Of a stretch of DNA of 64,000 nucleotides, positions 37,387-59,034 are shown piece after piece (position 1 is the first letter of the stretch; each line of letters opens with the position of its first letter). This DNA is from a bacterium (GTDB lineage: Bacteria > Deinococcota > Deinococci > Deinococcales > Deinococcaceae): assembly GCA_021810505.1 (NCBI GenBank), contig JAJZIR010000001.1, forward strand, positions 248,001 to 312,000, read 5' to 3'. The notes beneath the pieces were generated by a model that saw nothing but the letters and a program-made list of their open reading frames with translations, did no database searches and had not been told where the DNA came from. The translations under genes were made by a program, and so were the position numbers.

Positions 37387-38529
37387 TCAGGGAATCTCCA
37401 ACATGACATCGCGTCCGAGCCGTAAGCCAGCTGCTCTACAGGCTTCCTCGGCAATCCGCTGCTTTCGGGAGTTGGAGATATCGGTGTCGAGAAACCAGCC
37501 GGGGACGATCTCGGCGACGTAGTGGCGGAGATCCGGGCGGGTCGGGTGAACCCCTTGGGGGGACGCCGCAATGTAAGAGCGCACCTTTCCCTTCAGCGCA
37601 GGGGCAAGCCTCCCCAGCAGCGATGCGTCCCGGCCAGCGAGCTCCCTAAGCAGCACCAGGAGGGCCTGGGTAGCGTTTTTCGCCCGGATGACCCGGCCAC
37701 CGATAGAGACGGACGCTTGGCCGGCAGGCAGGTCGCTCAGCTGGCTGGGTCTCGGCCGTTCGGCCGCGGGGATAGAAGCTGCGGGTTTAGGCTGGAACTT
37801 GAAATAACTCGCAGCGGCGCGGTCCGAATTGGGGATTTTGAAGCTCGCCAGGAAATCTCCGACCTGCTCCGGATCCAGAGCGGGACCGCCCAGTTGCTGT
37901 ATCTTTTCGCGGATGAGGTCGACCAGCAGGCTATCCCGCTCCTCCACGAGGGCGCTCCAGGCGGCTCTCAGATACTCCAGCGCAGTTCGCCGCTGGCGTA
38001 CGAGCTCGAGGTCCTGGCGGGCGTCCGAGATCGCCTGCATATCCCACACGCGGCGGAATGCGAGGTAGCGCGAGAGCAGGGTGCAGGCTTCAAGCGCGCC
38101 GGCCTTCCACAGGTCGAGGTCGCAGAGAAGTACATCTTGCTCGCTCTGGCCCGCTCGTTCAGGAACGTAGAAGCGCCACTGCAGACCATCGGTGAGTACG
38201 ACTAAGGGTGAACCGAGCTTGGCTGCCCGATCGATCAACCCGGCTGCATGCCGGGGTTCGTCTTCCAGCGCGCCGGGCTCTACAACGTCCAAGAGCACAG
38301 GCTGGCTCCGGTCCGAAGCCAACAAGCCGTAGTCGACGCCCTGACCTTCGGGGCCAGCCGAGTAGGAGCGGCGCACCGCAGAGAGGTCGGCCAGGTCCCA
38401 GCCCAAGCTCTGCAGAATCGGCAGGACGATCGCCTCGCGCACTACCGCCGCATCCCGGTCCCGGTAGAGACCCTGCGACAGGTTGCGGCGGATGGTCTCC
38501 ATCAAGTGGCGAAGGGGGTCTTTGGTCAT
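37387..38529 (-). CDS. HsdR N-terminal-like (type IV restriction-like) protein, catalytic lysine apparently missing
   Basis: 380 aa. Residues 10-150 resemble the HsdR_N_2 domain found in standalone restriction-like proteins: VREAIVLPILQSLGWDL, VDYGLLASDRSQPVLLDVVEPG, LVVLTDGLQWRFYVPE. In active members the D...E-x-K core reads (I/V)EAK; here it reads VEPG, with no lysine. The C-terminal 100 residues are a separate domain ending SNSRKQRIAEEACRAAGLRLG. ATG 38529 follows GGGAG; the open frame upstream is derived from a duplicated piece of the next helicase gene. Last gene of the leftward DISARM-like arm. Confidence 0.7.
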   Translation of the reverse strand: MTKDPLRHLMETIRRNLSQGLYRDRDAAVVREAIVLPILQSLGWDLADLSAVRRSYSAGPEGQGVDYGLLASDRSQPVLLDVVEPGALEDEPRHAAGLIDRAAKLGSPLVVLTDGLQWRFYVPERAGQSEQDVLLCDLDLWKAGALEACTLLSRYLAFRRVWDMQAISDARQDLELVRQRRTALEYLRAAWSALVEERDSLLVDLIREKIQQLGGPALDPEQVGDFLASFKIPNSDRAAASYFKFQPKPAASIPAAERPRPSQLSDLPAGQASVSIGGRVIRAKNATQALLVLLRELAGRDASLLGRLAPALKGKVRSYIAASPQGVHPTRPDLRHYVAEIVPGWFLDTDISNSRKQRIAEEACRAAGLRLGRDVMLEIP

Positions 38530-38562
38530 CTGCCTAACTCCCGCTACAAGGTCGCTGCTGGG

Positions 38563-38680
38563 GAAACCCTCCGGGGAGAGTATTCTCTGCAGCAAAGAGG
38601 CCTAGGCGACCCAGCATACCGCTCGGGCTGAGCAGGATCGGCCGGCCAGAGGCGGTAATCTGGCCGGCGGCATAGCAAGG
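38563..38680 (-). pseudogene. 118-bp duplicated fragment of the upstream helicase gene
   Basis: This stretch matches 39941-40058, inside the neighbouring helicase, at about 105 of 118 positions with no gaps. Read in the helicase frame it still encodes the stretch GQITASGRPILLSPSGMLGR without a stop, then ends in TAG just before the nuclease-like gene. It sits 2 bp after the helicase stop codon. It is probably the remnant of a second helicase copy that was deleted. Confidence 0.85.
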
Positions 38681-38681
38681 C

Positions 38682-41456
38682 TCACTCCGGCGGGCCGCTC
38701 AGGAGTTGCGCAGCGCCCTTGGGATCTTTGACGAACCAGACCACCCGGCGGATCCCCCGCGTCACCGCGACGTAGGCTAGACGGTAAGCCTCATCGCGGG
38801 CCGCCTCGTCGTAGCTCTGGCGGAAGATCTCGGACTCGGCGTAGATAGCGTTGCGCAGGGGGTGGGTCGGGGGCACCTCGCAGTCCTCGCAGAGGATGGC
38901 TACCTCTCCCTGCAAACCCTTGGCGCGGTGGTAGGTCAGGAACTCGACGCCCCTAGAGCGGTTCAGCCCCCGGCGCTGGGCTAGACGCCGGACCTCATTC
39001 AGGATCCGGTTGCTGCGGGCCAGAACCAGGACTTTGTTGGGGTCAGCCTCCGGCAGGCTCTCGACGTAGGCCAGCTGCGCAGCGATCTCCTGGACGATCT
39101 GGCCTCGCCCAGCAGCGGAATCAGGATCAATCTGTACCAGCCGCACGCCGTGGTCGTCCTGACCGTCCAGCCGGTGGGCCCGAGCCTGTTTATCCGTCTT
39201 GAACTGCACCTCGGACAGAATCTTCTCGGAATCGCGCAGGATCGACGGGGTGCTGCGGAAGTTGATGGTCATCAGGTAGCGATCCGGGGTCTGCAACTCC
39301 CTGTGGACCAGGAAGTGGTCGCCGAAGCGGATAAAGATGTCGGGAGTGGTTCCGCGCCAGCCGTAGATGGACTGCCAATCGTCACCGATAGCCATCAGCG
39401 TGGGCTCGCCTCCCAGCTCCAGGACGCGGCGCTGCAGGGCCAGCAGCCAGGCTACGATCTGCGGCGAGATGTCTTGGAACTCATCGATCAGCAGGTTGGT
39501 GAAGGGGGCGAGCGCGCCGCGCTCTAAGCGCACCAAGTGATCCCTCGTCTGGGTCAGGAGCAAGAAAGCTCGGTTGAAAGTCATCATCTTGCGCTCGGCG
39601 AGCAGGCGCTCGAAAGCCGGCCAGAAGATGGCGAGGAGGGCTGCGAAATGGTGCTCGGCGGTGTACTCGCGGAAGGGGGGCAGTTTAGCTAAGGTCTCGG
39701 GCACCTCCATGCCGAGGTTCTCGATAAACGACCCCTGGGCGAAGAGAGCTTCTAGGATATCGACCGCTACGACCTCGCCGTCCAGCTGGAGGAAGAAGCG
39801 CGGCGCCGTGAGGAGCGGGGAATTGCGCCGCAGCTCCAACTCCAGGCGGCGAAGCTGAGCTGGGCCGCGGACGTCGAGGGCGTTGCCGGAATAGAAGGTG
39901 GCAAAGATGCTGCGCCTGACCTTCAGCGCGCCCCGCAGCGGAAACCCGCCGGGGAGAGTATCCTCCGCGGCAAAGAGGCTCAGGCGACCCAGCATACCGT
40001 TCAGGCTGAGCAGGATCGGCCGGCCAGTGGCGGTAATCTGGCCGTTGGCGTAGAAAGGAAAGCCTTCGACCCGCATGACCTCGAAGGGGGTGGGATCGAC
40101 GCCGTCCATCGCCCACTCCGGCGCTTCGCCGGCCTCCTTCAGCTCGGCCCACCTGGCGTTGATGCGCTGGACCAGCCCCAAGTCATCTTGGCTAGAGCGG
40201 CGCAGAGTGTCGTAGCGATACTGCCTCTCGTAGTCGTCTTCCTTGCGGTAGGCAGCCTTTTCGGTCTCGATGCGCATGAGCTCGAGGAGGTGGTGTTTGA
40301 ACTGGGCGTCCCCGTGGAAGGCTGCCAGATAGACCTCCCTGAGCAGGTCGATCTGCTGGTCACCCAGCTGGCCGGCAAAGGGGTTATCGAGGTCGTCGCT
40401 CTCCGCAGAGGTCTTCGGGCCATCATCCAGGACATCGAACCAGGTGATGTCAGAAAAGATCTCCCGGGCCAGGCGGTTGAGGGCGGCGTGAAAGGTGCTC
40501 ACCGCCGAGCGCAACGACTGGTTCAGAGGTTCGAGCTCGCCGGCCGGCATCCGGCTGCGCAAGGGTTCAGCCGAGAGGACTTGGAAGAGCTTGCGGCGCA
40601 GCTCCTCGCAGGACTTCACTGTGAAGGAGATGACCTTCATCTCGCTCAGCGCCACGCCCAGATAGCAGACCAGCAGGGCCACCCGCAGCACCAAGGTGGT
40701 GGACTTCCCCGAACCGGCGGCAGCGATCACGCAGGTGGCGGGATGGTCGCTGAAGACCATGGCCCACTGCTCCTCGGTAGGGGGACCGAGGGCGCCGGAA
40801 GCGACCAGCTGCGCGACATCAGCGCGCATCGCCGCCTTGATCTCCTCCGGGATCAGGAGCCGGCGGGGGCCGTAGAGCGATCGGTCGGCTTGGATGACCG
40901 CTCGCTTGCGCCGGTCCTCGATAACCCAGACCTGCTTGGCCATCCGCCGCTTGAGCTGGGCTTCCAGGTCGGCTATCCGGGCAGCGGCTTGGCGGCTGCC
41001 CTCAGCGAGGCCCTCCTGCCAACCCGCACTCCTCGCCTCAGCGAGCTGCGCCGCCATCAGGTTGGTGCCTTCGGCAAGCCCTTCCTTCCAGGCCGCCGCC
41101 CTGGCTTCGGCTACCGAGGCATCTCGCTGGACAGCGGCTTCGGCGAGGGTTTGCTGGCGGGCATTCGACTTTTCAGCCTCGATATGGGCTTCCAGGTCGG
41201 CTATCCGGGCAGCGGCTTGGCGGCTGCCCTCAGCGAGACCCTCCTGCCAACCCGCACTCCTCGCCTCAGCGAGCTGCGCCGCCATCAGGTTGGTGCCTTC
41301 GGCAAGCCCTTCCTTCCAGGCCGCCGCCCTGGCTTCGGCTACCGAGGCATCTCGCTGGACAGCGGCTTCGGCGAGGGTTTGCTGGCGGGCATTCGACTTT
41401 TCAGCCTCGATATGGGAGTGGATCATGGCAGCCAGCAAGCGGGTCATCGAGTTCAA
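38682..41456 (-). CDS. UvrD-family helicase with duplicated coiled-coil N-terminus
   Basis: 924 aa. Residues about 14-168 are two near-identical 76-residue units rich in Ala/Glu (each itself two versions of a 23-residue AEARxAxWxEGLAEG motif), predicted helical coiled coil. The rest is an SF1 helicase: Walker A AAAGSGKSTTLVLR (about 245-258), VISFTVKSCEELRRKL, LLIDEFQDISPQ (about 655), GDDWQSIYGWRG, INFRSTPSIL, LTYHRAKGLQGEVAIL and YVAVTRG. A long insertion follows motif Ia. The TTG 41456 start has GGAGG 6 nt upstream; ATG 41447 is an alternative. Third gene of the leftward arm; it may drive DNA unwinding in the system. Confidence 0.88.
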   Translation of the reverse strand: MNSMTRLLAAMIHSHIEAEKSNARQQTLAEAAVQRDASVAEARAAAWKEGLAEGTNLMAAQLAEARSAGWQEGLAEGSRQAAARIADLEAHIEAEKSNARQQTLAEAAVQRDASVAEARAAAWKEGLAEGTNLMAAQLAEARSAGWQEGLAEGSRQAAARIADLEAQLKRRMAKQVWVIEDRRKRAVIQADRSLYGPRRLLIPEEIKAAMRADVAQLVASGALGPPTEEQWAMVFSDHPATCVIAAAGSGKSTTLVLRVALLVCYLGVALSEMKVISFTVKSCEELRRKLFQVLSAEPLRSRMPAGELEPLNQSLRSAVSTFHAALNRLAREIFSDITWFDVLDDGPKTSAESDDLDNPFAGQLGDQQIDLLREVYLAAFHGDAQFKHHLLELMRIETEKAAYRKEDDYERQYRYDTLRRSSQDDLGLVQRINARWAELKEAGEAPEWAMDGVDPTPFEVMRVEGFPFYANGQITATGRPILLSLNGMLGRLSLFAAEDTLPGGFPLRGALKVRRSIFATFYSGNALDVRGPAQLRRLELELRRNSPLLTAPRFFLQLDGEVVAVDILEALFAQGSFIENLGMEVPETLAKLPPFREYTAEHHFAALLAIFWPAFERLLAERKMMTFNRAFLLLTQTRDHLVRLERGALAPFTNLLIDEFQDISPQIVAWLLALQRRVLELGGEPTLMAIGDDWQSIYGWRGTTPDIFIRFGDHFLVHRELQTPDRYLMTINFRSTPSILRDSEKILSEVQFKTDKQARAHRLDGQDDHGVRLVQIDPDSAAGRGQIVQEIAAQLAYVESLPEADPNKVLVLARSNRILNEVRRLAQRRGLNRSRGVEFLTYHRAKGLQGEVAILCEDCEVPPTHPLRNAIYAESEIFRQSYDEAARDEAYRLAYVAVTRGIRRVVWFVKDPKGAAQLLSGPPE
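40957..41416. repeat. 228-bp tandem duplication in the helicase gene
   Basis: Positions 40957-41188 and 41185-41416 are virtually identical (I see one base difference), period 228 bp or 76 codons. The duplication is in frame and doubles the coiled-coil segment. Confidence 0.9.
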
Positions 41457-41473
41457 TTTTCCCCTCCTGATAG

Positions 41474-41507
41474 GCTGCAGCTAGTTGTCCGCCCAACTAG
41501 CTGCAGC
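41474..41507 (-). promoter_or_regulatory. 14-bp perfect inverted repeat just upstream of the helicase ribosome-binding site
   Basis: GCTGCAGCTAGTTG and CAACTAGCTGCAGC flank a 6-nt loop. On the minus strand the hairpin is followed within about 10 nt by the GGAGGGG site of the helicase gene. There is no U-run, so it is not a standard terminator. It could be an operator or an RNA hairpin that tunes expression or protects the mRNA 5' end between drmB and the helicase. Confidence 0.7.
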
Positions 41508-41599
41508 TCCAGATTTGCGAGCATGTGCGTTCTCCCGAGCAGATCATCGCGTCTTGATATCCAACTTTCTCCCTGTGCGCCACGAGCTTACTAGATAGG

Positions 41600-43435
41600 T
41601 TACCCCCCGGAGCCCTGCGGATAGAACGCCGCAGCTTCCCCCTGTAGGGTAGGAATCAGCAGAGCGCGGTCTAGGAAGTGGTTGTTGAACTCGCACGACG
41701 TCTCGGGCAAGAAACCGCAGGCATGACAGCATGCCCCGTATTTAGAGCCGTCCTCAGAGGGAGTGTGTTCGGCGCACAGGGGATCTGATGGACAGATCGC
41801 CGCTCTAGCCAAAGCCCGCTGGAGCAGCGGTTCTAAGCGTTCTAGCAGGCCCAGCTCGACCAGTCCACCCAGCGTGCCGTCGGCGTCCGGGGCGGCAGTG
41901 TAGATCAAGATGCCGGCTGCCTCTGACCGGCAGTCAGCGTAGACCCGCTCGCGCAGGCTAGCCGCGTTATAACCGCACTCCAGAGCAAACTCTCGGATCA
42001 AGAGGTGGGCTAGGGTATGCAGCAGCGGGAGGCGCGGACCCCTGACCAAAACGCCGATCCGCTCTTCCGGCGAGAGGCTGATCAGAATCTGCTCGAAGCG
42101 CTCTCTCACCTCAGAGCGCGCTTCCCAATCCTCTAGGGCAGCCGCATCGATCTGCAGAAAAACACCCTCACCGCGAACTTCAAAGGCAGGTATCCACGTA
42201 GCCCGGTCTTTGGTCAGCGGGCCCAGCCGGCCCTGGATGTGGGTGGTGAGCTCATCCGGCGGGATCACCCGGGTAAAACCGATCAGGGCTTCGACGACGC
42301 GCAGGCGGTGCACCAAAACGACGCTCTGAATATGCAGGGAGGGAAGGGGGCCGAGTTCCTCGGCTTCAAACTCCCCGCTCTCCTTTGGCAGTGGCCGAGA
42401 TATCAAGGTCTGGTACTCGGGAGTTTTGAGCGCTTCTTGGCCGAGCTGCTCCCTCTCCTCCGGCGGGATTTGATCGCGCTGCCGCAGGATCTCCGACCAG
42501 ATCTGCGCCTCTTCAAAACCGTCTAGCTGTTGACGCAGGTCTAGGCGCCAGCGAAGCTGATGGCTGAGGTCATCCGAGCTCGAGGTATCAGAGAATTTAG
42601 GAAGTAGGCGCTCGATCAGCGCGCTCAGGCTGCGGTCTTCATCGGGAACGCTGAGGACCGAGCGCATGACCGAGAACCAAGTCACCCGCTTACCCAGGGC
42701 GATCGTCTGCAGGCGCTCGGTGCAGGGATCTTTGTCGAAGAAGTCGTCTAGATGGGGGTGACGACCGCGGCAAGCCGGCAGAGCAGACGCGGCGTCAGGG
42801 CCAAAGGCTGCGATCATGGATTGCTTCTGCCCGCAGCCGCAGACCACCAGAAGATCCTCCAAAGCGTTGGCCTGCTGCGTAGATCTCCAGTAAAGGGATA
42901 ACTGCTCTACGCAGTCGCTCGGACCGCGGTGGACAAACCAGCGCCAGGGGAACTCGTCCAGGTGGCCGGCCGAGCAGATGGTAAGAAAGCCAGCTGGAAG
43001 AGCCAAGGGGGGCCTCTTGCCCTGCTTCGGGCATCCCGGGTGCAAGATTCTTGCCCTGCTGGGGTCGTAGCGGGCGGCAGCTGCCCCCTCGAGCCTGAAC
43101 AGCCCCGAGCTGTACTCAGCCAACATGGAGCACCTGGTGCAGCGGTACCACTGGGGAAAGAGGCGCACCGAAGCGCCCTCGGACAAGCCCGGGGCTCCTT
43201 CGGAAACCGGCGGGCGGATCAAATTCTTTACCTGTTCACCGAGCACCGCCCGCACCCCGGCCAGCAGCCTGGGCTCTTCGATCTTGGATGTATCGCTCCT
43301 GGGATCAACCCTCCATGCGTCTAGGCTATCCGTCAGGACCGAGACGTTGCTCAAGTCGATCAAGGCGCCGGGGCCGTGGTTGCGGAGCAGCTGGCTCCCC
43401 CGAAGGACGCCGACTTGGGGGTGGCGAACAGCCAT
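41600..43435 (-). CDS. drmB: DrmB-like DUF1998 protein (DISARM-related)
   Basis: 611 aa. The N-terminus GVLRGSQLLRNHGPGALIDL is typical of DrmB. Cys-rich zinc motifs follow (YRCTRC; HPGCPK; TICSAGHLDEFPW; VCGCGQ). The C-terminus carries the DUF1998 signature: LLHTLAHLLIREFALECGY, GILIYTAAPDADGTLGGLVELG, then CCHACGFLPETSCEFNNHFLDRALL. In DISARM, DrmB binds DrmA and together they restrict phage DNA. ATG 43435 overlaps the drmA stop (TAATG), so they are translated together. Confidence 0.85.
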   Translation of the reverse strand: MAVRHPQVGVLRGSQLLRNHGPGALIDLSNVSVLTDSLDAWRVDPRSDTSKIEEPRLLAGVRAVLGEQVKNLIRPPVSEGAPGLSEGASVRLFPQWYRCTRCSMLAEYSSGLFRLEGAAAARYDPSRARILHPGCPKQGKRPPLALPAGFLTICSAGHLDEFPWRWFVHRGPSDCVEQLSLYWRSTQQANALEDLLVVCGCGQKQSMIAAFGPDAASALPACRGRHPHLDDFFDKDPCTERLQTIALGKRVTWFSVMRSVLSVPDEDRSLSALIERLLPKFSDTSSSDDLSHQLRWRLDLRQQLDGFEEAQIWSEILRQRDQIPPEEREQLGQEALKTPEYQTLISRPLPKESGEFEAEELGPLPSLHIQSVVLVHRLRVVEALIGFTRVIPPDELTTHIQGRLGPLTKDRATWIPAFEVRGEGVFLQIDAAALEDWEARSEVRERFEQILISLSPEERIGVLVRGPRLPLLHTLAHLLIREFALECGYNAASLRERVYADCRSEAAGILIYTAAPDADGTLGGLVELGLLERLEPLLQRALARAAICPSDPLCAEHTPSEDGSKYGACCHACGFLPETSCEFNNHFLDRALLIPTLQGEAAAFYPQGSGG

Positions 43436-47355: not shown

Positions 47356-47476
47356 CACTCCCCCTTTGGTGAAGCGCAAGCGCAGTCCCTCAATCCAAGG
47401 ATATTCGAGAGTTCAGCGCGGCCGCGCGGATCTAGCCAAATAGCTCGCGGCGAGGCGGCGTCGGCAGCAGATGAGC

Positions 47477-47505
47477 TTGACAAGTAGTGGGGTCCAGCTT
47501 ATAAT
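47477..47505 (+). promoter_or_regulatory. Perfect consensus sigma-70 promoter
   Basis: TTGACA (47477-47482), 17 nt, TATAAT (47500-47505): both hexamers match the consensus exactly. It points toward the DinG-RecQ fusion gene, which starts about 350 nt downstream, leaving a long leader or room for a small RNA or small gene. Confidence 0.7.
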
Positions 47506-47695
47506 GAGGAGTTAGAGTGTTGAATTCAGTATGAAGCAGATGTGTTTGGATAAATCCATACACACCATTTTCATTGGGACGGCCGAGGTGGAGATCTGCG
47601 ATTCGACGAATACAGTGCGTCACGTCAAAGTCCGTGCGATCCAAGCCCGCGAGAAGTGAAGCCTCCTGCCGAAGAGCCCGCTGGAGACCCGGTAG

Positions 47696-47717
47696 GTGCG
47701 TACGCATAGGTACGCAC
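47696..47717. promoter_or_regulatory. 8-bp palindrome, candidate operator
   Basis: GTGCGTAC and GTACGCAC around a 6-nt centre, lying between the consensus promoter and the DinG-RecQ start. Suitable for a dimeric repressor; no regulator gene is obvious in the locus. Confidence 0.5.
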
Positions 47718-47864
47718 GCGTCAGCGCGCAAGCCCGAGCTGGCAAAAGAACGAGCGTCACCACATGACGCGGACGGGCGCTAAGTTGTGCACCAGCTCTG
47801 GCCAGAGCCGATGTAGACCTTCGGCGTCCCACAGGATTGCAGGCCGCTCGCATGAGGAGGTGCT

Positions 47865-50800
47865 ATGCCGGACCACGATCTAGCTCTCGACCTAGAAACC
47901 ACCGCAGCAGACCCGACAAAAGCCGAGATCCTACAGATCGCCGCCGTAACCAGAGCAGGGCAGCAATTTGCACGCTACGTCTCGACCGATAGCGAGATCC
48001 CGGAAGAGGTCTGGGAGCTCACCGGCATCGACCGCGCTACTTATTACCGGGAAGCTGCACCTTTAGCCGACGCTCTGGGCGACTTTTTGGAGGTCGCGGC
48101 CGGCCACCGGCTGGTCGGACACAACATCTACGCCTATGACCTGCCGATCTTGAGGCGGCAAGCCAATCAGGCCGGACTCCGTGCAGCGCTGTGGGAGGAG
48201 TTGCTCTCTGAATCCAACGCTGTCGACACGCTGCGCTGGGCGCAGCTGTGCTTCCCTACCCCACCGGCCGAACTCAACAGCTACCGCTTGATCGACCTCT
48301 ACCGGCTGGCTAGCGGCCAAGAGCTCAGCGGCGCCCATCAGGCGACCCACGACGCCGCAGCTTGCCTAGTGGTCTTGGACTGGCTGCGCAGCCAGCCGGT
48401 TTCGCTCGGTGTCCTAGCCGTTTGGGCCAAGCTGGGGTTGGCTGAGGGCGAAGGGGCAGACCCCGCCGGCGAAGACCAGATCACCCGCCTGCTCAGCACG
48501 CCAGCGCCCATAGACCAGGTAGTCGAGTTTGGGGCGGCGCTCCCCCCACCGGCGGAGTTACCGGAGTCCCTGCTACCCAGCCGGCGCGAAGCGCAGGAAA
48601 AAATGCTGCAGCACGTCACCTCGTGCCTGCAGCGGGGTAAGCGCTTGATCCTGCAGGCCCCGACCGGGACTGGGAAAACCAAGGGCTACCTCTACCCCGC
48701 CCTGCACTGGACTGCGGAGCAGCCACAGGAAAACGGGCGAGTGATCGTCGCGACGCACACCAAAGCGCTGCAAGCCCAGGCCATCGCCGAACTCCAAGAG
48801 TGCGCTAGGCAGGGTTTCATGGTGCAGGCCGTGACGGTCAAGAGCAGCAGGGATCTCATCTGCCCCGCAGCTCTAGGCGATGAGCTGCAGGACTCCGGGC
48901 AGAGCCCAGCGCAAGCCGCCGCCCCGGGCGTCTTGACCCACTTCGTCGCTAGGGGAAAATCCGATCTGGAAAGCCTGCCGCGTTACTGGGACAACCAGGC
49001 GGAGTTCCGCGAGCTGCGCTCGCGGGTGCGCACCAACCCAGCTCGCTGCGAGGCCAGCTGTCCCTACGCTGAGACCTGCGCTTTTCAGACCGACCTGAGC
49101 CAGCGCAAGGAAGCCAGAATCTGGGTTACCAACCAGGCCTGGCTGCTGCGCCACGCTAGGCCCGAAGAAGACGAGCTCGCAGCTTTGGCCCGAGGGGGGC
49201 AGGGCAAGAGGGCGGCCGGAACCTCGGGCAAGATCCACTGGATCATCGACGAGGGGCATAACCTGGAACAGGTAGCCACTGAGGCCTTCTCGTCGGAGAG
49301 CGGTGAAGAGGAGCTGCGCCACCGGCTGCGCCAGCTGCTCGGGCGGGACGGCAAGGGAGGTTTGCTGAAGACCAAGGCGGCCGAGCGGGAATTCGGCCCT
49401 TCCCAGGCCGAAGTGCTCCAGGCCTGCACGCAGGCGCAGGATGCGCTCGAGATCTACGCGAAGAGGCTCAGGGGGCTGGTCACACAATTCGGCGAGAGCA
49501 CACCCGGGCATGGCGCCACGCTCACCCTCGACACGCGTAGCTGCAGGTACAGCGGCTGGACTCCGGTCAGGAGCTCCGAGGAAGCCTGGCTAGAGAGACT
49601 ATTCAAGCTCCGGGAATATCTCAAGCAGGTTGAGAAAAACAGCTGGCTGGGCAGACGGCTTCAGCCGATCGTCGAAGCTTTTCAGAAGCACCAGGAGCTA
49701 GCCCGAGAGCGCAGCGCGGCGGTGAAAGCCCTGCGGGGCCAAGAGGCCGAAAAAGCAGAAGGATACAATTTCTTGCATCAGATCTCCTGGAGCGAGGAGC
49801 GGGGCTTCGTGCAGCTCTGTCAACCGATCGATTTGAGCGACTCGCTGCGGCAGATCTGGGCAGGGCTAGAGAGCCTCACGGTCACCAGCGCCACCCTGGC
49901 AGTGCCCACCGATAAGGACCGGGTCGGGTTCGGTTTCTTCCAGCGCTTGACCGGTCTAGAAAGCGCAGAGTGCCACAAGCTGCCGCCCAGCCTCCCCTAC
50001 GAGCAAGCCCACTTGATCGTCCCGAGCCACCTGCCCGAAGCCCGCAGCAGCTTGATGCGGCGCTTCGACGCGATGGTGCGCACCGAGCTGCGCACCATCT
50101 TGCCCGCCGCTGGGCGCAGTCTGGTGTTGTTCACCAGCAATGAGCGCTTGCGGGAGATGGCCGCTGCCCTAGAGGACCTACCCAACCTGTACCGCCCACT
50201 CACCCGCCGAGAGCGGGATGACGTGGCGCAGCGCATGCAGCGCAGAGGCGAGCCGGGATCGGCCCTGGGGACACGCGGCTACATGGAGGGGGTGGATTTC
50301 CCAGATCTGAAGTTGGTGAGCTTGGAGCGCATCCCCTTCCCGATCCCTAGCCCGCTGCTCAACAAGCGGCAGTTGCTAGCTGCCGCGCAGGGGCTAGATC
50401 CCTGGAGCGACGTCTACCTGCCTAGAGCGGTGTTGTCGTTTGTGCAGGCTTTCGGCCGTCTGATCCGGGATAGCCGCGAGGCCTCTGGTCCCGGCGCCTT
50501 CGTGCTCTGGGACAAGCGGTTGCTGCAGGCGGTCTACCAGAACGCCTTCTTCGAGGCCCTGCCGCGGGGGGTTCAGATCGACAAGCTCCGGGACCGCAAA
50601 GCTTTCTACGACCTCTTGGCGGGTATCTTCGGCGTTCCCAGAGAGGAGCTCCCGAGCGAGCCGCTGGTCACGCAAGCCGATGCCCAGCTGGCCGCAATCG
50701 CAGCCAGCGCGGCGGCGCCGCTCGAAAAAGCTGAGAGGGTTGCCGCGGAATTCTGGGGAGTTAACTTGGGGGATAGCAGCGAGCGGAGCGAGGTGCAGCG

Positions 50801-52928
50801 AGGAGCCATCGCCCAGGCGATCGCCGGACGCGACCTGCTGGTCTTTCTGCCGACCGGTTTCGGAAAGAGCTTGATCTACCAAGTCCCCGCGCTGCTGTCC
50901 AACGGGCTTACCTTGGTCATCTCCCCGCTGATCGCCTTAATGCACAACCAGGTCCAGGACCTGGTCAGCCGCAACCTTCCAGCGGCCTACATCGACTCCC
51001 AGATGCAGGCCGCCGAGAGGCGCGCAGTCTTAGATCAGGTCCAATCGGGCGCACTGCGGCTTCTCTATGTGAGCCCGGAGCGGTTAAACCGCGACCAGCA
51101 GCTGCGCCAGACGCTAGCCGATCTGCCAGCTGGCACCATCGAGCGCGTGGTCTTCGATGAGGCGCACTGCTTGGATCAGTGGGGCTTCAGCTTCCGGCCC
51201 GACTATCTCAAAGCGGCCAAGACAGTGCAAGAGCAGTTCCCTAGCTGCCCCAGGCTGGCCTGCACCGCGACCGCCAGCGGGCAGGTCAAAAAGCAGCTCA
51301 CCGAGCATCTCGGCATGCGGAATCCGGAGACGATCACCAGCAGCCATGACCGCAGCAACCTGCGTTACGACGTCCGCGAAGGCGACGATACCTCCAAGTT
51401 CGGTGTAGTCACCCAGGTGCTCGATTACATCGAGCAAAAGCATTCCGGAGACGCCGCTATCATCTACGCTGGTACCAGAAAGAAAACCGAGCACCTGGCC
51501 TGGGCGCTCAGCGAGCTCGGTTACCGCGCTGACGCCTACCACGCCGGCCTATCCGCCCTCATCCGCAGCCAAGTAGAGGAGCGCTTTCAAAGCGGAGAAA
51601 CCAAGGTGGTAGTCGCTACAACAGCCTTCGGAATGGGCATCGACAAGGCTAATGTCCGCGCGGTGATCCACTACCAGCCACCAGCCAGCTGCCAAGCCTA
51701 CCTCCAAGAATCGGGCCGGGCCGGGCGCGACGGCAAGGATGCCTACGCCGTTCTCCTTTACCACAAGCGAGACTTCAGCCTGGAAGAGCGCAAGCTGGAA
51801 AAGAGCGATCTGGAAAAAGACCAGAGGATCGCCGAAGCTACCCTGCGGCTGCTCGATCGGAGGCCCGGAGCCTGGATTGGCTACTGGAAAGAGCTGTTCT
51901 TGGCGGTAAAAGACGAGCTGGAGGATGACGAAGGCGCCCTAGAGGACGACGAAGGTGCTGAGAGTCCAGGCGATACGCTAGAGGACTTACAGCGCGTCGT
52001 CGGAACACTCGACCACAACGACGTCTTGGCGTTGCGCTATCGCCTAGGAAAGGCCAAGCTGCTGCTCGGACCCTCCACTGGGAGCCAAAAACTTTTCTCG
52101 TACTTGCAGGAGAGCAGTCCGGCCTTCCACCAAATCAGCAGCAGATCGCAGGGAAACAGCGGCGAGCTCGGCCAGCCCTACTACTTGGACTATGCCAGCA
52201 AGGCTTTTGTAGAAGGGCCTTACTCCAAAGACGCCGAGGAGCTCAACAGAAAGCTGCGCTCTATGCAAGAAGAGCAGGTCGCACAGCTCTATCACTACCA
52301 AGAGAGCGCCATCTCGCTAGAGAAGGTGGGTAAGGGATCCAACCTAAAGAGCTGGAGGAGCTTGCAAGAAAAGATCGCGGAACAAAGCCGCTGCGCGCTC
52401 GATAGGATGCGAGACTACGCCAAAACACCGCACTGCAAGCGCCGCGAACTGCTCAGCGCGATCGACGAGCACTGCAGCGGCTGCAGCAGCTGCAGCAGCT
52501 GCGATGGCAGCGCGCCCTGGGAGCTAGGCAAGCCGAGAAACCCTGAGGAGATCCGCAACGCCTTGCGCCCCCTGCGGACCATTCTGCGCTTTCTGGAAAA
52601 GGAGCAAGAAACCTGGGAAGCACAATCTCGAAGCCACCCGTACGGCGGTCTAGGTACCAGCAGGATCGAGCAAGCCCTGCGCGGGGATACTGCCCCTAGG
52701 GGCAAGGCGGACGGCGAGAGCCAAAGCAAGAAATCTCGGGCGGAATGGCGCAACCCGCTCTTCGGATACCTCAGCTTCATCTCCGAGGATTGGATCCGTC
52801 AGGATCTAGAGGAGGCAGGAAGGCGCGGCCTCCTAGAAGTCGGTTCCTATAATGGCAGGCCAACCTATAAGTTATCCAAAAAAGGCCGCGCTTTTCTGCA
52901 CCCGGAGTTGGCTGGGAGGCCGTCGTGA
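47865..52928 (+). CDS. DEDDh exonuclease-DinG helicase-RecQ helicase triple fusion
   Basis: 1687 aa. (1) Residues 1-175: DnaQ-like 3'-5' exonuclease with D9, E11 (LDLET), D92 (HNIYAYD), H158 and D163. (2) About 235-900: XPD/DinG-type SF2 helicase with Walker A QAPTGTGKTK (264-273), an iron-sulfur cysteine set (C333, C395, C399, C405) and DEGH (462-465). (3) About 955-1687: RecQ with LPTGFGKSLIY (about 995), FDEAHCLDQWGFSFRPDY, TTAFGMGIDKANVRAVIHY, QESGRAGRDG and a cysteine cluster at about 1535-1545. The ATG follows GAGGAGG. Exonuclease-DinG fusions are known; adding RecQ gives three enzymes in one chain. It overlaps the next gene by 4 nt. Confidence 0.9.
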   Translation: MPDHDLALDLETTAADPTKAEILQIAAVTRAGQQFARYVSTDSEIPEEVWELTGIDRATYYREAAPLADALGDFLEVAAGHRLVGHNIYAYDLPILRRQANQAGLRAALWEELLSESNAVDTLRWAQLCFPTPPAELNSYRLIDLYRLASGQELSGAHQATHDAAACLVVLDWLRSQPVSLGVLAVWAKLGLAEGEGADPAGEDQITRLLSTPAPIDQVVEFGAALPPPAELPESLLPSRREAQEKMLQHVTSCLQRGKRLILQAPTGTGKTKGYLYPALHWTAEQPQENGRVIVATHTKALQAQAIAELQECARQGFMVQAVTVKSSRDLICPAALGDELQDSGQSPAQAAAPGVLTHFVARGKSDLESLPRYWDNQAEFRELRSRVRTNPARCEASCPYAETCAFQTDLSQRKEARIWVTNQAWLLRHARPEEDELAALARGGQGKRAAGTSGKIHWIIDEGHNLEQVATEAFSSESGEEELRHRLRQLLGRDGKGGLLKTKAAEREFGPSQAEVLQACTQAQDALEIYAKRLRGLVTQFGESTPGHGATLTLDTRSCRYSGWTPVRSSEEAWLERLFKLREYLKQVEKNSWLGRRLQPIVEAFQKHQELARERSAAVKALRGQEAEKAEGYNFLHQISWSEERGFVQLCQPIDLSDSLRQIWAGLESLTVTSATLAVPTDKDRVGFGFFQRLTGLESAECHKLPPSLPYEQAHLIVPSHLPEARSSLMRRFDAMVRTELRTILPAAGRSLVLFTSNERLREMAAALEDLPNLYRPLTRRERDDVAQRMQRRGEPGSALGTRGYMEGVDFPDLKLVSLERIPFPIPSPLLNKRQLLAAAQGLDPWSDVYLPRAVLSFVQAFGRLIRDSREASGPGAFVLWDKRLLQAVYQNAFFEALPRGVQIDKLRDRKAFYDLLAGIFGVPREELPSEPLVTQADAQLAAIAASAAAPLEKAERVAAEFWGVNLGDSSERSEVQRGAIAQAIAGRDLLVFLPTGFGKSLIYQVPALLSNGLTLVISPLIALMHNQVQDLVSRNLPAAYIDSQMQAAERRAVLDQVQSGALRLLYVSPERLNRDQQLRQTLADLPAGTIERVVFDEAHCLDQWGFSFRPDYLKAAKTVQEQFPSCPRLACTATASGQVKKQLTEHLGMRNPETITSSHDRSNLRYDVREGDDTSKFGVVTQVLDYIEQKHSGDAAIIYAGTRKKTEHLAWALSELGYRADAYHAGLSALIRSQVEERFQSGETKVVVATTAFGMGIDKANVRAVIHYQPPASCQAYLQESGRAGRDGKDAYAVLLYHKRDFSLEERKLEKSDLEKDQRIAEATLRLLDRRPGAWIGYWKELFLAVKDELEDDEGALEDDEGAESPGDTLEDLQRVVGTLDHNDVLALRYRLGKAKLLLGPSTGSQKLFSYLQESSPAFHQISSRSQGNSGELGQPYYLDYASKAFVEGPYSKDAEELNRKLRSMQEEQVAQLYHYQESAISLEKVGKGSNLKSWRSLQEKIAEQSRCALDRMRDYAKTPHCKRRELLSAIDEHCSGCSSCSSCDGSAPWELGKPRNPEEIRNALRPLRTILRFLEKEQETWEAQSRSHPYGGLGTSRIEQALRGDTAPRGKADGESQSKKSRAEWRNPLFGYLSFISEDWIRQDLEEAGRRGLLEVGSYNGRPTYKLSKKGRAFLHPELAGRPS

Positions 52929-54184
52929 ACCCTCCGGAGCAGGCCGGAGACAGCGGCACCCAAGCGGGCGAAGCAGGCGAGCTCAGCGAGCAGATACTGG
53001 AGACGGCCAAGCGCCTGCGGAACAACCCGCAGCTGGCCAGAGAGCTCTGTCAGAAGGTCGATCCGAAGCGCTTAGCGGAACTCTGCCGACAGGCGTTTCT
53101 CCCCTCACAGAGCGATCGGCGAGCCCGCGATTTCCAAAGGCTCCGGGCCGAGAAAGCGCTGCACCTTCCACCCAACCACTTGCACAAAGTCACTGGACAG
53201 CAAGTGCTGAAAAACTTGGAAGAGTTATGCCAGCGGGAGGAATCCGCCTCCCTGATGGCGAGCCTGTTGGCAGAGCTAGGGCCAGAAACTGCAGCCCACT
53301 TCAGGGCCGAGCTCGCGGCTGGCGAAGTCGCGCGCGAAGCGAGCGCCGAGCCGGCAGCCACTCGGGAGACCGGGCAGGCAGGATCCGAGCAAGAAGCCGC
53401 AGCAGAAGTCGAGTTCGGCAAAAAGCAGCGCAGAGACCTCGAAAGGTTGCGCCGCCAGCGCCAAGAAGATGCCAGAACTATCGAAAAGTTACAGCGGAAA
53501 AACGATGAGTTAAAACGCCAATTTGACAGGCTGGCGAGAACCTGGCAGAAGAAATTGGCCGAGAGCCAGAACGGAAAAACTCTTCTGAAGGGTCGGTCGG
53601 AAGAACAGGAACAAACTATCCGTGACCTTAAGGACCGGCTCTCTAGGCTTGAGGCGCAACTCTCTACCGCAAGGAGCGATAAGGAGAGGCATGAGCTGAG
53701 AAGCAAAGAGCTGCAAAAACAAAATGCCGGCTTGGAGGCCGAAGCGCAAAAGCTCAGGGAAAACCTAGAACAAGTTCGCTCCAGACTCGAGCGCGCGAGG
53801 GAGGAGCAAGCCAAGCTGACAACCCAGCTGAAGCAGCGGGAGCGCTTAGCGGATTTTCCAAAGGCTCTGGCGACGGATACCGAAAAGGTCTTGCAGGTCG
53901 ACTACGCTCTCTTGGGCCAAAGCCCAGACAAGCGCCTCGAAAACCTGCTGGAGCTGTACGATGCCGTAGTCCACAGGCGGAATCACCCCTCGCTCGAGAG
54001 AACTAACTGGGAGCTGTGCCGGGAACAACTCCAAGGTCTGTTGGTTTTGCAGATCGAGACGCTCCTCGCCGACCTGCGCCAACTCCCGATCCAGCAGTGG
54101 CTGCGCAGCCTGCAATTCTTGCTCGAGGGTGCCGGTGCACCCAGGCAACCCGAGCTCATTCCAAAAAACCGGGGGAGGCCATGA
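52925..54184 (+). CDS. Coiled-coil protein of the DISARM-like locus, 419 aa
   Basis: The start codon GTG 52925 overlaps the stop of the triple fusion. The N-terminal 125 residues look globular (QILETAKRLRNNPQLARELCQKV ... LLAELGPETAAHF). Residues about 155-310 are a long, charged coiled coil (repeated EKLQRKNDELKRQ-, LRSKELQKQNAGLEAEAQKL-type heptads) resembling SMC or myosin rods. The last 100 residues (VDYALLGQSPDKRLENLLELYDAV ... LQIETLLADL) are helical. No enzyme motif is seen. It probably acts as a scaffold or sensor linking the helicases with the downstream proteins. Confidence 0.8.
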   Translation: MNPPEQAGDSGTQAGEAGELSEQILETAKRLRNNPQLARELCQKVDPKRLAELCRQAFLPSQSDRRARDFQRLRAEKALHLPPNHLHKVTGQQVLKNLEELCQREESASLMASLLAELGPETAAHFRAELAAGEVAREASAEPAATRETGQAGSEQEAAAEVEFGKKQRRDLERLRRQRQEDARTIEKLQRKNDELKRQFDRLARTWQKKLAESQNGKTLLKGRSEEQEQTIRDLKDRLSRLEAQLSTARSDKERHELRSKELQKQNAGLEAEAQKLRENLEQVRSRLERAREEQAKLTTQLKQRERLADFPKALATDTEKVLQVDYALLGQSPDKRLENLLELYDAVVHRRNHPSLERTNWELCREQLQGLLVLQIETLLADLRQLPIQQWLRSLQFLLEGAGAPRQPELIPKNRGRP

Positions 54185-54297
54185 CCAACAACCACCCTGA
54201 GACCAGACTTTCATCCGAAGAGCGAGCAGCGCGGGCGACCCCCAAGGCATCCCGGGTGGGAACCAGCCTGTACCGCACAGCTGACAGGCGGCTCTGA
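54181..54297 (+). CDS. 38-aa small protein in the DISARM-like operon
   Basis: Starts MTNNHPETRLSSEERAARAT. Its ATG overlaps the stop of the coiled-coil gene (ATGA) and its own TGA overlaps the next ATG (TGATG). It thus fills the gap exactly and keeps ribosomes coupled. It is basic and Arg-rich (ASRVGTSLYRTADRRL). Whether the peptide itself works or the frame only serves coupling is open. Confidence 0.5.
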   Translation: MTNNHPETRLSSEERAARATPKASRVGTSLYRTADRRL

Positions 54298-54722
54298 TGG
54301 ACCCATCTGAGGAAAAAATCCTAAGGGCTAATCGGCAGATCGAGGAGCTCGATGAGCAAGTCCGCCGCCTCACCGCCGAAAAACAAAGTCTAGAAAAAGA
54401 GCTCAGGCAGGAGCGCGAGAGACGGATTTCCCAAGCGAGCGCACAGATCCCGCGCAGGACCGCAAACGATCCTGATCTCAAGCTCTTCCGTGAGCAGCTC
54501 GAGCTGCTGCAGGGCCAGGAGGCGGAGGTTGCCGAAGCCTTCCGCCGAGGGGTCTGGGGGGAGCTCTCCGAAAGGCTACAGCAGGAGCTAAGCCAAAGGT
54601 TTTTGACCATAAGACAGGGGGTGGTTAGCCAAAAGATGTTCAATGATATGAGCGAGCTCATCCTCGAGCAATGGCTGTTGCTGCGCCGGCTCCAGTTATG
54701 TATTTCAGAGGAAAAGCGATGA
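54297..54722 (+). CDS. Second coiled-coil protein of the locus, 141 aa
   Basis: Residues 5-50 form a heptad-rich coiled coil (ILRANRQIEELDEQVRRLTAEKQSLEKELRQERERR); the rest is predicted helical (FREQLELLQGQEAEVAEAFRRGVWGELSERLQQEL). Start and stop overlap the neighbouring genes by 1 and 4 nt. No known family. Its coiled coil could pair with that of the 419-aa protein. Confidence 0.75.
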   Translation: MDPSEEKILRANRQIEELDEQVRRLTAEKQSLEKELRQERERRISQASAQIPRRTANDPDLKLFREQLELLQGQEAEVAEAFRRGVWGELSERLQQELSQRFLTIRQGVVSQKMFNDMSELILEQWLLLRRLQLCISEEKR

Positions 54723-56467
54723 CGCCCGAGATCAGAGACTTGAAGGGGCTCATCCTGGGAGAGATCGCCCACAGAGGGCCAGTCCTAGCTTCTATCGACG
54801 AGGAGGGTTATCAGTGGCTGCGGCGGCAGATGCGCTCGATCTGGGAGAAGCCAGGCCACGTCGATCGAGACAAGAAGTGGCTAGTCCTCGCATTTCTGCG
54901 CGGCTATACCTTCCATCGGGAAGTCTCAGAGGATGAAAACAAGTTCTGGAGCAATTTTCACAAAGAACTCGGCATCCATCGGGGGGAGCTACCCACTGCC
55001 AAGCAGTACGACCTGCTCGAAAGCGCCCTGCGCTCCTACGAAGGGATTGAGCTGCAGGTACGAGGAGGGAAAGCCCGCCGGCGCCGCGAGTTCGTCAAAA
55101 CAATCGACAGCGTGTGGGGGATCGGGAAGTTTTCGGTCGGGGAGGTCTTGGATCTGTTCCTCGACTATTACAAGAGATTTTCCTCAGAGCGCCCTACTGC
55201 AGTTCCATCCGAGGAGGTGTTCAAGCGGCTACGCCCCAACGAAGGCGCGCAATTTTGGCGACAAGCTGCAGCTTACGGACCGATCCTGGCAGCCCTAGCG
55301 TCACTGATTCCGAGCTTGCTCAAGGCACCCTTGAACTTGGATCTCAACGACCCCGCGAAAGTCGACAGCTGGCTACAGCAGCAGGGTCTAGAGGTGGGCA
55401 CGCCAAATCCCATCCACTTCCTAGCCAACAAGGGACCTAGCTCGCTAGCCAAGCTCTTACGCCTACTCGGGCGCCCTGAACCGCTCAACCCACACCAAAC
55501 CATCGCTCGCCGAAGAAGTGGCGTCGCTCCTGCCACCAGGTCAGCAGGCGGCTTTTCCGGGCAACTGCGGGTCCCAGACGCTACCAGCGACGACCAAGTT
55601 GAACCGATCCTAGTCACCGTGGTCGATAGCTGTAACATCGAAAAAGAAGAGCTCACGTTTCAGCGGCACAACGATCTAGATCCGATCGTGCTGGGAAGGG
55701 CAGAAATCCTGGATTTCTTCTTAGGGGACGAGGAGCCCCAAGCCATCCGCTGGATCCCAGAGCGGTCCCCTACCCACCAGCGCCTCGAGTTTTTTGAAGA
55801 CAAGTGGGTCGAGCTATCGATTGAAGCTAAAGAGCTGACGTGGGGGCATCTAGTCGACGCAGCGAAGGGCAAAGCCTTAGGTATCCTGGAGCTGCCCGCG
55901 AGCAGCGATCCATACCTAGAGGGCAATTTTCCGTTCCCAAAATACCAGCTTAGAGCCAGCCTACAATCCCACCAGGACGATAAGGTCTCAGTTCTACCCG
56001 GTCCGGGTGGGCTCGGCGATCTCCTCAGGCAGATAGAGAAAAAGGCAGAAGCGTACGACGAGCTCCTCATAGAACTGAGCCCTCAGGAAGCAAGCAGGCC
56101 CGCTAGAGCCAGTCATCCGTGGTTTATTTTGCTGCACATTCCAGTACGGCAAAAACCACAGTTCTCGGCAGAGCTGCAGGGTACAGATCTAGTCTTACGG
56201 CTACCGACTTACGATAATTTCTCGGTTCAGCTGGAGCTGAGAGCACCCGAGAAGGTATCTGAATTTAAAGAACTGCAGGCCAAGCGCCAAGCCGAGCTGC
56301 GGCACCCCCTCAGCACCTATCAGTTATTGCTGGGCGGTCAGGTCAGGTTAGTTTTGAACTGGCAAGGAGAGCAGGTAGGCGACCCAATCGAACTCAAAAT
56401 CCCGAAAATTTCTTGGACCTCCCTGCTAGAACAGGGGGTTGGACTTGGAGATCTGTCTGGGATCTAG
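54719..56467 (+). CDS. Unknown 582-aa protein, last gene of the DISARM-like rightward arm
   Basis: ATG 54719 overlaps the preceding stop (ATGA). The N-terminal 250 residues are helical (DEEGYQWLRRQMRSIWEKPGHVDRDKKWLVLAFLRGYTFHREVSEDENKFWSNFHKELGI), somewhat like DNA-binding or recombinase N-domains. The C-terminal 290 residues are beta-rich (LVTVVDSCNIEKEELTFQRH, WVELSIEAKELTWGHLVDAAKG, DELLIELSPQEASRP, VRLVLNWQGEQVGDPIELKI). I see no nuclease, methylase or NTPase motif and no HKD phospholipase-D motif. The function cannot be named. Confidence 0.75.
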   Translation: MTPEIRDLKGLILGEIAHRGPVLASIDEEGYQWLRRQMRSIWEKPGHVDRDKKWLVLAFLRGYTFHREVSEDENKFWSNFHKELGIHRGELPTAKQYDLLESALRSYEGIELQVRGGKARRRREFVKTIDSVWGIGKFSVGEVLDLFLDYYKRFSSERPTAVPSEEVFKRLRPNEGAQFWRQAAAYGPILAALASLIPSLLKAPLNLDLNDPAKVDSWLQQQGLEVGTPNPIHFLANKGPSSLAKLLRLLGRPEPLNPHQTIARRRSGVAPATRSAGGFSGQLRVPDATSDDQVEPILVTVVDSCNIEKEELTFQRHNDLDPIVLGRAEILDFFLGDEEPQAIRWIPERSPTHQRLEFFEDKWVELSIEAKELTWGHLVDAAKGKALGILELPASSDPYLEGNFPFPKYQLRASLQSHQDDKVSVLPGPGGLGDLLRQIEKKAEAYDELLIELSPQEASRPARASHPWFILLHIPVRQKPQFSAELQGTDLVLRLPTYDNFSVQLELRAPEKVSEFKELQAKRQAELRHPLSTYQLLLGGQVRLVLNWQGEQVGDPIELKIPKISWTSLLEQGVGLGDLSGI

Positions 56468-56614: not shown

Positions 56615-56644
56615 GTTTCGTGCATACTAGGGTTGGAGCGCGAA

Positions 56645-58663: not shown

Positions 58664-59034
58664 ACGACGCACGGTTTTTGGTTTTTCGTCGCGGAATCTT
58701 CTATGAAGGTGGCGACGCTCAACTTTGGGCAATCACGCCGCCGCCTATGGTGACTCCAGCGAAGTGTGATTTTCTTCCCGTCGTATCGCGCAGAACTCTT
58801 GTATTCCGAGAGGATCTGTTCGATCCATTAACCAGAATCAGACGAGGCAGGCTTTATTCCTGCCTAGGCTGTCGGGGAGATCGCCCACGTTGGTCGGCAT
58901 CCAGGGTCACTAACGGGCTGTATGGGCCGCTTGTTGGAATTGCCACGGATAATTTTAACGAAGAAGATCGGTGTGAAATCGACCATGTGCGTGAGCGGGC
59001 GGTCATGCTGTCCGCGCCGGAGGAACAAGGATGA
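58660..59034 (+). CDS. 124-aa protein of unknown function between hsdM and hsdS
   Basis: Begins MNDARFLVFRRGIFYEGGDAQLWA. The ATG overlaps the hsdM stop and the stop overlaps the hsdS start (ATGA at both ends), so it is a genuine operon member. Two cysteines in a short CLGCRGDRPRW segment could bind metal. No recognised family; possible roles are regulation or protection from foreign anti-restriction proteins, but that is a guess. Confidence 0.7.
   Translation: MNDARFLVFRRGIFYEGGDAQLWAITPPPMVTPAKCDFLPVVSRRTLVFREDLFDPLTRIRRGRLYSCLGCRGDRPRWSASRVTNGLYGPLVGIATDNFNEEDRCEIDHVRERAVMLSAPEEQG

What the first reader, a model, noticed from the sequence alone, without database searches (positions are those of the whole stretch)
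37387..56467. A large divergent DISARM-related locus without methyltransferase or DrmC
Two operons face apart from one spacer. Leftward: DrmA-like helicase, DrmB-like DUF1998 protein, UvrD-type helicase, HsdR-N-like protein. Rightward: exonuclease-DinG-RecQ fusion, coiled-coil protein, 38-aa ORF, second coiled-coil protein, 582-aa unknown. Classical DISARM has drmA-drmB-drmC plus a DNA methylase. Here the methylase and the phospholipase-D protein are absent and are replaced by three further helicase modules and structural proteins. It sits next to a type I restriction system. Inference: a distinct anti-phage or anti-plasmid system that recognises invader DNA without host methylation marking.
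Basis: partly seen in the sequence, partly recalled or inferred. Interest (0 to 1): 0.92.

Follow-up and report, generated by a model that had tools for sequence, protein, structure and literature searches.

The report
DISARM core beside unrelated helicase-nuclease operon
The stretch is a bacterial defence island in which the two core genes of the known anti-phage system DISARM sit back to back with a separate, never-studied four-gene operon, built round a giant exonuclease-helicase-helicase protein, that recurs by itself in hot-spring bacteria such as Thermus thermophilus and may be an unrecognised way of destroying foreign DNA.

Summary
Leftward, drmA and drmB are genuine DISARM genes: both pass NCBI's curated cut-offs, and their nearest relatives lie in complete class 1 DISARM loci. 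drmC, drmD and a cognate methylase are absent from the locus, and no drmC-like protein was found in the genome. The UvrD helicase and the HsdR-N-like protein downstream are local additions: none of the 80 closest UvrD loci has drmA or drmB within 10 kb, and the HsdR-N-like protein has lost its catalytic lysine. Rightward, an exonuclease-DinG-RecQ fusion, two coiled-coil proteins and an unknown protein form an independent operon. It recurs without drmA/drmB beside it at all 16 sites examined in Thermus and related genomes, including plasmid pTT27 of T. thermophilus HB27. Fusion and unknown protein always occur together. Across genomes the operon and DISARM meet only as often as chance predicts. 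The fusion was noted in 2005; I found no description of the operon. It may be an accessory anti-invader helicase-nuclease, but repair remains a strong rival. A type I restriction system follows, and an ARMADA type I-like system lies just beyond the window. Interest: moderate, carried by the rightward operon.

The parts
43435..47379 (-). drmA, DISARM YprA-type helicase (first ATG at 47358); GGGKT and DEFH motifs, RecA2 motifs and the CPWCG zinc motif conserved
   Evidence: NF038325 DISARM_DrmAS 1173.8 bits against cut-off 950; PADLOC DrmA E=5e-280; alignment with four DrmA proteins of complete class 1 loci, 40-45% identity
41600..43435 (-). drmB, DUF1998/MZB protein, start overlaps the drmA end
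   Evidence: NF038324 570 bits against cut-off 240; Pfam MZB
38682..41456 (-). UvrD-type helicase with an N-terminal coiled-coil stretch made of a 228-nt tandem duplication; 143 bp after drmB; not a DISARM component elsewhere
   Evidence: Pfam UvrD; repeat D1; 80 closest relatives lack drmA/B within 10 kb
37387..38595 (-). HsdR-N-like protein, PD-(D/E)xK site degenerate (EVK replaced by DVV); likely start 38529
   Evidence: weak matches of about 30% identity to 270-390 aa HsdR-N-like proteins; alignment; no plasmid, Pfam, PHROG or PDB match
47477..47505 (+). consensus sigma-70 promoter in the spacer, pointing to the rightward operon; followed by a 42-codon ORF 47531-47659
47865..52928 (+). DEDDh exonuclease - DinG/XPD helicase - RecQ helicase fusion, 1687 aa; exonuclease residues and Walker A motifs conserved, DEAH-box residues present (DEGH in the window's DinG part)
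   Evidence: alignment A2 with D9, E11, D92, H158, D163, GTGKT, GFGKS invariant or nearly so; full-length relatives in 13 other genomes
52925..54184 (+). coiled-coil protein 1 with a conserved C-terminal domain; 4-base overlap with the fusion gene
   Evidence: alignment A3; relatives only in Thermus and Allomeiothermus plasmids and the Deinococcota loci
54181..54297 (+). 38-aa ORF with overlapping start and stop on both sides; not found in the other loci
54297..54722 (+). coiled-coil protein 2; equivalent to the 156-209 aa gene of other loci by position and composition, weak by sequence
54671..56467 (+). unknown protein, conserved helical N-terminal domain (LRGYxxYREVPENxxxFW) and a C-terminal region; likely start 54719
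   Evidence: alignment A1; no Pfam, NCBIfam, PADLOC, PHROG or PDB match
56633..64000 (+). neighbouring complete type I restriction system: hsdM 56633-58663, 124-aa ORF, hsdS 59031-60380, PIN protein 60377-61258, hsdR 61255 to past the window end

Best explanation
Two unrelated modules lie back to back in a horizontally acquired defence island. The left one is the DrmA-DrmB core of a class 1 DISARM, shorn of drmC, drmD and its methylase, with a UvrD helicase and a degenerate HsdR-N-like gene added locally. By analogy with DrmAB of Serratia it would load on DNA with a 5' single-stranded overhang, translocate, and block or hand over invader DNA; with no nuclease of its own it may be impaired or depend on other systems of the island. 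The right one is an independent accessory operon. Its giant protein would act as a one-chain RecBCD-like end-processing machine: DinG (5'-to-3') and RecQ (3'-to-5') run along opposite strands in the same direction while the DEDDh exonuclease trims the 3' end, held and targeted by the two coiled-coil proteins and the unknown protein. I think its likeliest use is destroying invading or incoming DNA (phage, plasmid, transforming DNA). Shown: gene content, motifs, independence of the two modules, obligate pairing of fusion and unknown protein. Inferred: polarities, complex formation, targets and the defence role.
For: DrmA and DrmB pass curated cut-offs; the closest relatives are complete drmD-drmM-drmA-drmB-drmC loci, one in the same family of bacteria. 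Cassette fusion-cc1-(cc2)-unknown in the same order in 14 other genomes and on Thermus and Meiothermus plasmids; full-length fusion in 13 other genomes, all 13 also with the unknown protein, chance about 5e-16. No drmA/B beside any of them. Catalytic residues conserved across 39-43% identity. Accessory character: 14 of 111 genomes; present in strain HB27 but the DinG and RecQ parts absent from HB8 (PMC1274311); pTT27 recQ Highly Permissive in Tn-seq (PMC13140390); third-position GC below most neighbours. Next to CRISPR-Cas and/or BREX genes in T. thermophilus HB27, A. silvanus and T. oshimai. B. subtilis DnaQ-DinG degrades single-stranded DNA 3'-to-5' (PMC12525004). DrmC is dispensable and often missing (PMC9142583).
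Against: Several chromosomal copies sit among housekeeping genes, one near recA, which fits repair as well as defence. None of the cassette proteins except the fusion has a recognisable domain, and the structure models were too poor to use. No functional data exist. B. subtilis DinG lacked robust helicase activity, so the two-motor picture may be wrong. Comparison with other phyla is limited to plasmids, phages, viral contigs and 299 Pseudomonadota genomes.
Confidence: 0.55

Rival explanations
1. The rightward operon is a DNA repair or recombination accessory: the fusion resects or unwinds stalled forks and broken ends, and the partners tether it to chromosomal DNA.
For: DnaQ-DinG and RecQ are classical repair enzymes; B. 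subtilis DinG acts at stalled forks (PMC12525004); chromosomal copies often have housekeeping neighbours, one near recA; the protein was discussed among DNA-repair differences between strains in 2005 (PMC1274311).
Against: Patchy presence, 14 of 111 genomes; differs between strains HB27 and HB8; pTT27 recQ tolerates insertions; several copies lie among CRISPR and BREX genes on megaplasmids; GC3 below most neighbours.
Confidence: 0.35
2. The leftward genes are the remains of a class 1 DISARM that lost drmD, drmM and drmC and no longer works.
For: Nearest relatives are complete five-gene loci; repeats around uvrD and the HsdR-N-like gene show local rearrangement; the HsdR-N-like site is degenerate.
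Against: drmA and drmB are full length with motifs conserved; drmC is dispensable in tested DISARM systems; other loci keep drmA-drmB with varied partners, for example Sphingomonas without drmC, Tsukamurella and Deinococcus gobiensis.
Confidence: 0.4
3. The nine genes are one divergent DISARM-like system.
For: Back-to-back arrangement on one spacer; shared low-GC island.
Against: No other genome held has the combination; the cassette stands alone in all others; co-occurrence with drmB is at chance; the UvrD is unlinked.
Confidence: 0.04
4. DrmAB here works in trans with the other systems of the genome: the PglX-like methylase and the nuclease-bearing YprA helicase of the ARMADA-like set, or the type I methylase, supply marking and cutting.
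For: ARMADA-type YprA, BrxHII-like and PglX-like genes on the same contig; a second BrxHII-like/PglX-like pair on contig 17.
Against: Those genes are only about 30% identical to DISARM drmD and drmM and form their own recognised set; no evidence of cross-talk.
Confidence: 0.1

Closest known systems
DISARM class 1 (drmD-drmMI-drmA-drmB-drmC)
   Same: DrmA and DrmB are clear members; overlapping drmA-drmB order
   Different: no drmC, drmD or adjacent drmM; UvrD and HsdR-N-like genes instead
ARMADA type I (Bell et al. 2025, PMC12458937)
   Same: YprA-family helicases; an ARMADA type I-like set lies on the same contig just right of the window
   Different: the locus in question has helicase and DUF1998 parts as separate genes and no BrxHII-like or PglX-like gene
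DnaQ-DinG-RecQ fusion of T. thermophilus HB27 (Omelchenko et al. 2005, PMC1274311)
   Same: same three-domain protein, about 41% identity over nearly the full length; same order of following genes
   Different: the 2005 paper, in the passages read, noted the protein only, not the operon
RecBCD/AddAB/AdnAB end-processing enzymes (from general knowledge)
   Same: helicase plus nuclease acting on DNA ends; two motors of opposite polarity as in RecBCD
   Different: unrelated superfamily 2 motors and DEDDh exonuclease in one chain; an AddAB-like pair lies separately at 30972-35845
Firmicutes-type DnaQ-DinG (TIGR01407) and type IV CRISPR DinG
   Same: exonuclease and DinG domains
   Different: scores below the family cut-off (209.5 against 547.7 bits); RecQ fused; no csf genes seen
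Gabija GajB
   Same: UvrD-type helicase matches GajB models
   Different: generic helicase similarity; no GajA beside it

Membership tests
DISARM | DrmA helicase | tested here: met
   NF038325 1173.8 bits against 950
DISARM | DrmB DUF1998 protein as a separate gene next to drmA | tested here: met
   NF038324 570 bits against 240; one-base overlap
DISARM | DrmC phospholipase D protein (dispensable according to PMC9142583) | tested here: not met
   no match in window or right flank; only one sub-threshold PLDc_2 match in the genome, on another contig
DISARM | cognate DNA methylase DrmMI or DrmMII in the operon | tested here: not met
   the only genome matches to DrmMI belong to an ARMADA-like set and an orphan pair; DrmMII not searched genome-wide
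DISARM | DrmD (class 1) or DrmE (class 2) | tested here: inconclusive
   no DrmD match in the window; DrmE not searched separately
DISARM | anti-phage activity | not testable with these tools
   needs plating assays
ARMADA type I (for the set right of the window) | YprA helicase with fused DUF1998 and C-terminal Vsr-type nuclease, then BrxHII-like helicase, then PglX-like methylase | tested here: met
   L068 19220-7475: DEAD and MZB domains, weak sub-threshold DUF559 at the C-terminus; DruE-, DrmD/BrxH- and DrmMI/PglX-like matches in that order. Tree placement not tested
ARMADA (for the drmA/drmB locus) | BrxHII-like and PglX-like genes in the operon | tested here: not met
Gabija | GajA next to the UvrD helicase | tested here: not met
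   neighbours of the UvrD are drmB and the HsdR-N-like protein; no GajA match among the nine proteins
Dpd (DpdF) | DpdF above its curated cut-off | tested here: not met
   205.5 against 550 bits, RecQ domain only
Known anti-phage system for the rightward cassette | any system-specific model for the fusion's three partner proteins | tested here: not met
   coiled-coil background or nothing in PADLOC, NCBIfam, Pfam, PHROGs

The most novel reading that the evidence does not exclude
The exonuclease-DinG-RecQ protein with its two coiled-coil partners and the unknown protein is an undescribed four-gene anti-invader system of the Deinococcota, working as a single-chain two-motor helicase-exonuclease. 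It is already present on the megaplasmid of the laboratory strain Thermus thermophilus HB27, where it can be tested directly.
Probability: 0.45. Interest if true: 0.65.

Novelty: new variant of a known kind. Interest (0 to 1): 0.45.

Why it matters
If the rightward operon proves to be a defence system, a model thermophile has carried an unrecognised one next to its CRISPR loci, built on a helicase-nuclease plan not seen in the catalogued systems searched here, and it can be deleted and assayed at once. If it is a repair module, it is a rare case of a two-motor, one-chain end-processing enzyme. The leftward half adds one more example of the DrmAB core travelling with varying partners, and the neighbouring ARMADA-like set shows DISARM and ARMADA relatives together in one island.

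Tried and rejected
A UvrD link to DISARM: 80 closest UvrD loci and 111 Deinococcota genomes gave no case; a Tsukamurella DISARM locus has a UvrD gene, but it is not specifically related to this one. The HsdR-N-like protein as replacement nuclease: catalytic lysine lost. DrmD/DrmM of the right flank as the missing DISARM genes: they belong with an ARMADA-type YprA gene. Coiled-coil matches to JetC, LmuB and SMC proteins: composition only. PDB and viral-contig searches for the unknown protein: nothing. The viral-contig search with the fusion returned matches to the RecQ region, with no second cassette gene and no full fusion. The 38-aa ORF as a split start of coiled-coil protein 2: the summed length fits (179 aa), but the sequence does not resemble the other starts.
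Full report
What is there. The window lies in a 2.31 Mb genome of the phylum Deinococcota (the phylum is inferred from relatives that coincide in size or match with named Thermus and Allomeiothermus plasmids). GC content falls from 0.70-0.74 left of 36 kb to 0.61-0.65 over 36-52 kb and 0.54-0.59 to the right, as expected of an acquired island. drmA and drmB overlap by one base; uvrD starts 143 bp after drmB; the HsdR-N-like gene follows. To the right, the fusion gene and coiled-coil gene 1 overlap by four bases, a 38-aa ORF overlaps coiled-coil genes 1 and 2 at its ends, and the unknown gene probably starts at an ATG overlapping the stop of coiled-coil gene 2. The spacer holds a perfect sigma-70-like promoter pointing right.

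The leftward pair is DISARM. DrmA scores 1173.8 bits against NCBI's DISARM cut-off of 950 and DrmB 570 against 240. Their nearest relatives in plasmids and in a genome of the same family (G001) are complete class 1 loci with drmD, an MmeI-type methylase, drmA, drmB and drmC. Helicase and zinc motifs of the window's DrmA are conserved. No drmC is present in the window or the right flank, and the genome has a single sub-threshold PLD match, on another contig. The published DISARM structure paper reports drmC to be dispensable and often missing (PMC9142583), so its loss alone does not exclude function. Loss of the methylase is less usual, but drmA-drmB pairs with other partners exist, for example in Tsukamurella and Deinococcus gobiensis, and a Sphingomonas locus lacks drmC.

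The UvrD and HsdR-N-like genes are not part of a conserved set. The 80 loci with the closest UvrD relatives, mostly Pseudomonas, contain no drmA, drmB or HsdR-N-like gene within 10 kb. No other Deinococcota genome has a close UvrD of this kind. The HsdR-N-like protein has only weak relatives, whose PD...EVK-type site is intact in the closest ones; in the window the EVK is DVV, so catalysis is unlikely. A 228-nt tandem duplication in uvrD and a 124-nt copy of a uvrD segment just upstream of the HsdR-N-like gene show local rearrangement.

The rightward genes are a separate operon. The unknown protein (598-aa query) was found in 15 other genomes of 111 held; one of these (G095) is a marginal match. 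In the 14 others the same contig carries the fusion, coiled-coil gene 1, usually a recognisable coiled-coil gene 2, and the unknown gene in that order; none has drmA, drmB, uvrD or the HsdR-N-like gene beside it. One of the 14 is cut by a contig end within the fusion. A direct search with the fusion found it full length in 13 other genomes, all of which also hold the unknown protein; the hypergeometric chance of such overlap is about 5e-16, not corrected for relatedness of the genomes. drmB occurs in five other genomes; overlap with the cassette is one genome, on different contigs, against 0.64 expected. On plasmids, all 21 records with at least 80% coverage of the fusion are Thermus, Meiothermus or Allomeiothermus. 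A Deinococcus actinosclerus plasmid has the three-domain fusion with a different, 886-aa partner. The profile of the unknown protein found nothing in 299 Pseudomonadota genomes or in viral contigs.

What the fusion should do. Across nine aligned proteins the DEDDh residues (D9, E11, D92, H158, D163), the Walker A motifs of DinG and RecQ, three cysteines of the DinG iron-sulphur region and zinc-site cysteines of the RecQ end are conserved. B. subtilis DinG, which has the same exonuclease plus DinG layout, degrades single-stranded DNA 3'-to-5' (PMC12525004). RecQ and DinG have opposite polarities (general knowledge), so on one duplex they could travel together as RecB and RecD do. This is inference.

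Defence or repair. For an accessory, invader-directed role: patchy distribution; HB27 has the fusion while HB8 lacks its DinG and RecQ parts (PMC1274311); the recQ on pTT27 is highly permissive to transposons (PMC13140390; that this is the fusion gene is my reading); lower third-position GC than most neighbours; neighbours that are CRISPR-Cas or BREX genes in HB27, A. silvanus and T. oshimai. For repair: the enzyme types, and chromosomal copies beside housekeeping genes, one near recA. In T. aquaticus, T. brockianus and M. taiwanensis the neighbours are toxin-antitoxin, plasmid-maintenance or ordinary genes. I put defence slightly ahead (0.45 to 0.35). A 2025 review of DinG-like proteins contains no mention of RecQ (PMC11981726), and I found no paper describing the operon; most subscription papers are not covered by the library.

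Surroundings. A complete type I restriction system with a PIN-domain gene follows. Right of the window, at about 71475-83220 in window numbering, lies an ARMADA type I-like set in the published gene order (YprA helicase, BrxHII-like helicase, PglX-like methylase; PMC12458937). A second BrxHII-like/PglX-like pair without a YprA gene beside it lies on contig 17.

Verdict. The DISARM half is a reduced member of a known system. The right half is a recurrent, essentially undescribed operon that deserves a direct test in T. thermophilus.

Noticed in passing
L068 7475-19220 (-), about 71475-83220 in window numbering: ARMADA type I-like set: YprA helicase with DUF1998 and a weak Vsr/DUF559-like end, BrxHII-like helicase, PglX-like methylase.
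   Followed up: partly
[quoted passage not shown]
   Followed up: partly
window 38557-38680 and 39935-40058: 124-nt direct repeat, 88% identical: a segment inside uvrD is copied just upstream of the HsdR-N-like gene.
   Followed up: no
window 40950-41405: 228-nt tandem duplication, 98% identical, in the coiled-coil start of the UvrD helicase.
   Followed up: no
window 47477-47659: Perfect TTGACA-17-TATAAT promoter followed by a 42-codon ORF in the divergent spacer; possible leader peptide of the rightward operon.
   Followed up: no
window 60377-61258: PIN-domain gene inserted between hsdS and hsdR of the type I restriction system, with a 124-aa unknown ORF between hsdM and hsdS.
   Followed up: no
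window 30972-35845: AddB-like (PD-(D/E)xK) and AddA-like (UvrD) genes directly left of the island.
   Followed up: no
L028 12640-15818: What looks like an IS607-type element (inferred from the ORFs) interrupts the coiled-coil 1 gene of the cassette in genome G039.
   Followed up: no
L168 9773-17730: Deinococcus actinosclerus plasmid carries the exonuclease-DinG-RecQ fusion with an unrelated 886-aa partner and a UvrD-like gene upstream.
   Followed up: partly
L068 1807-5157: 1116-aa protein of no known family next to an apparent transposase with two overlapping frames; has an HDRY motif reminiscent of phospholipase D proteins.
   Followed up: no
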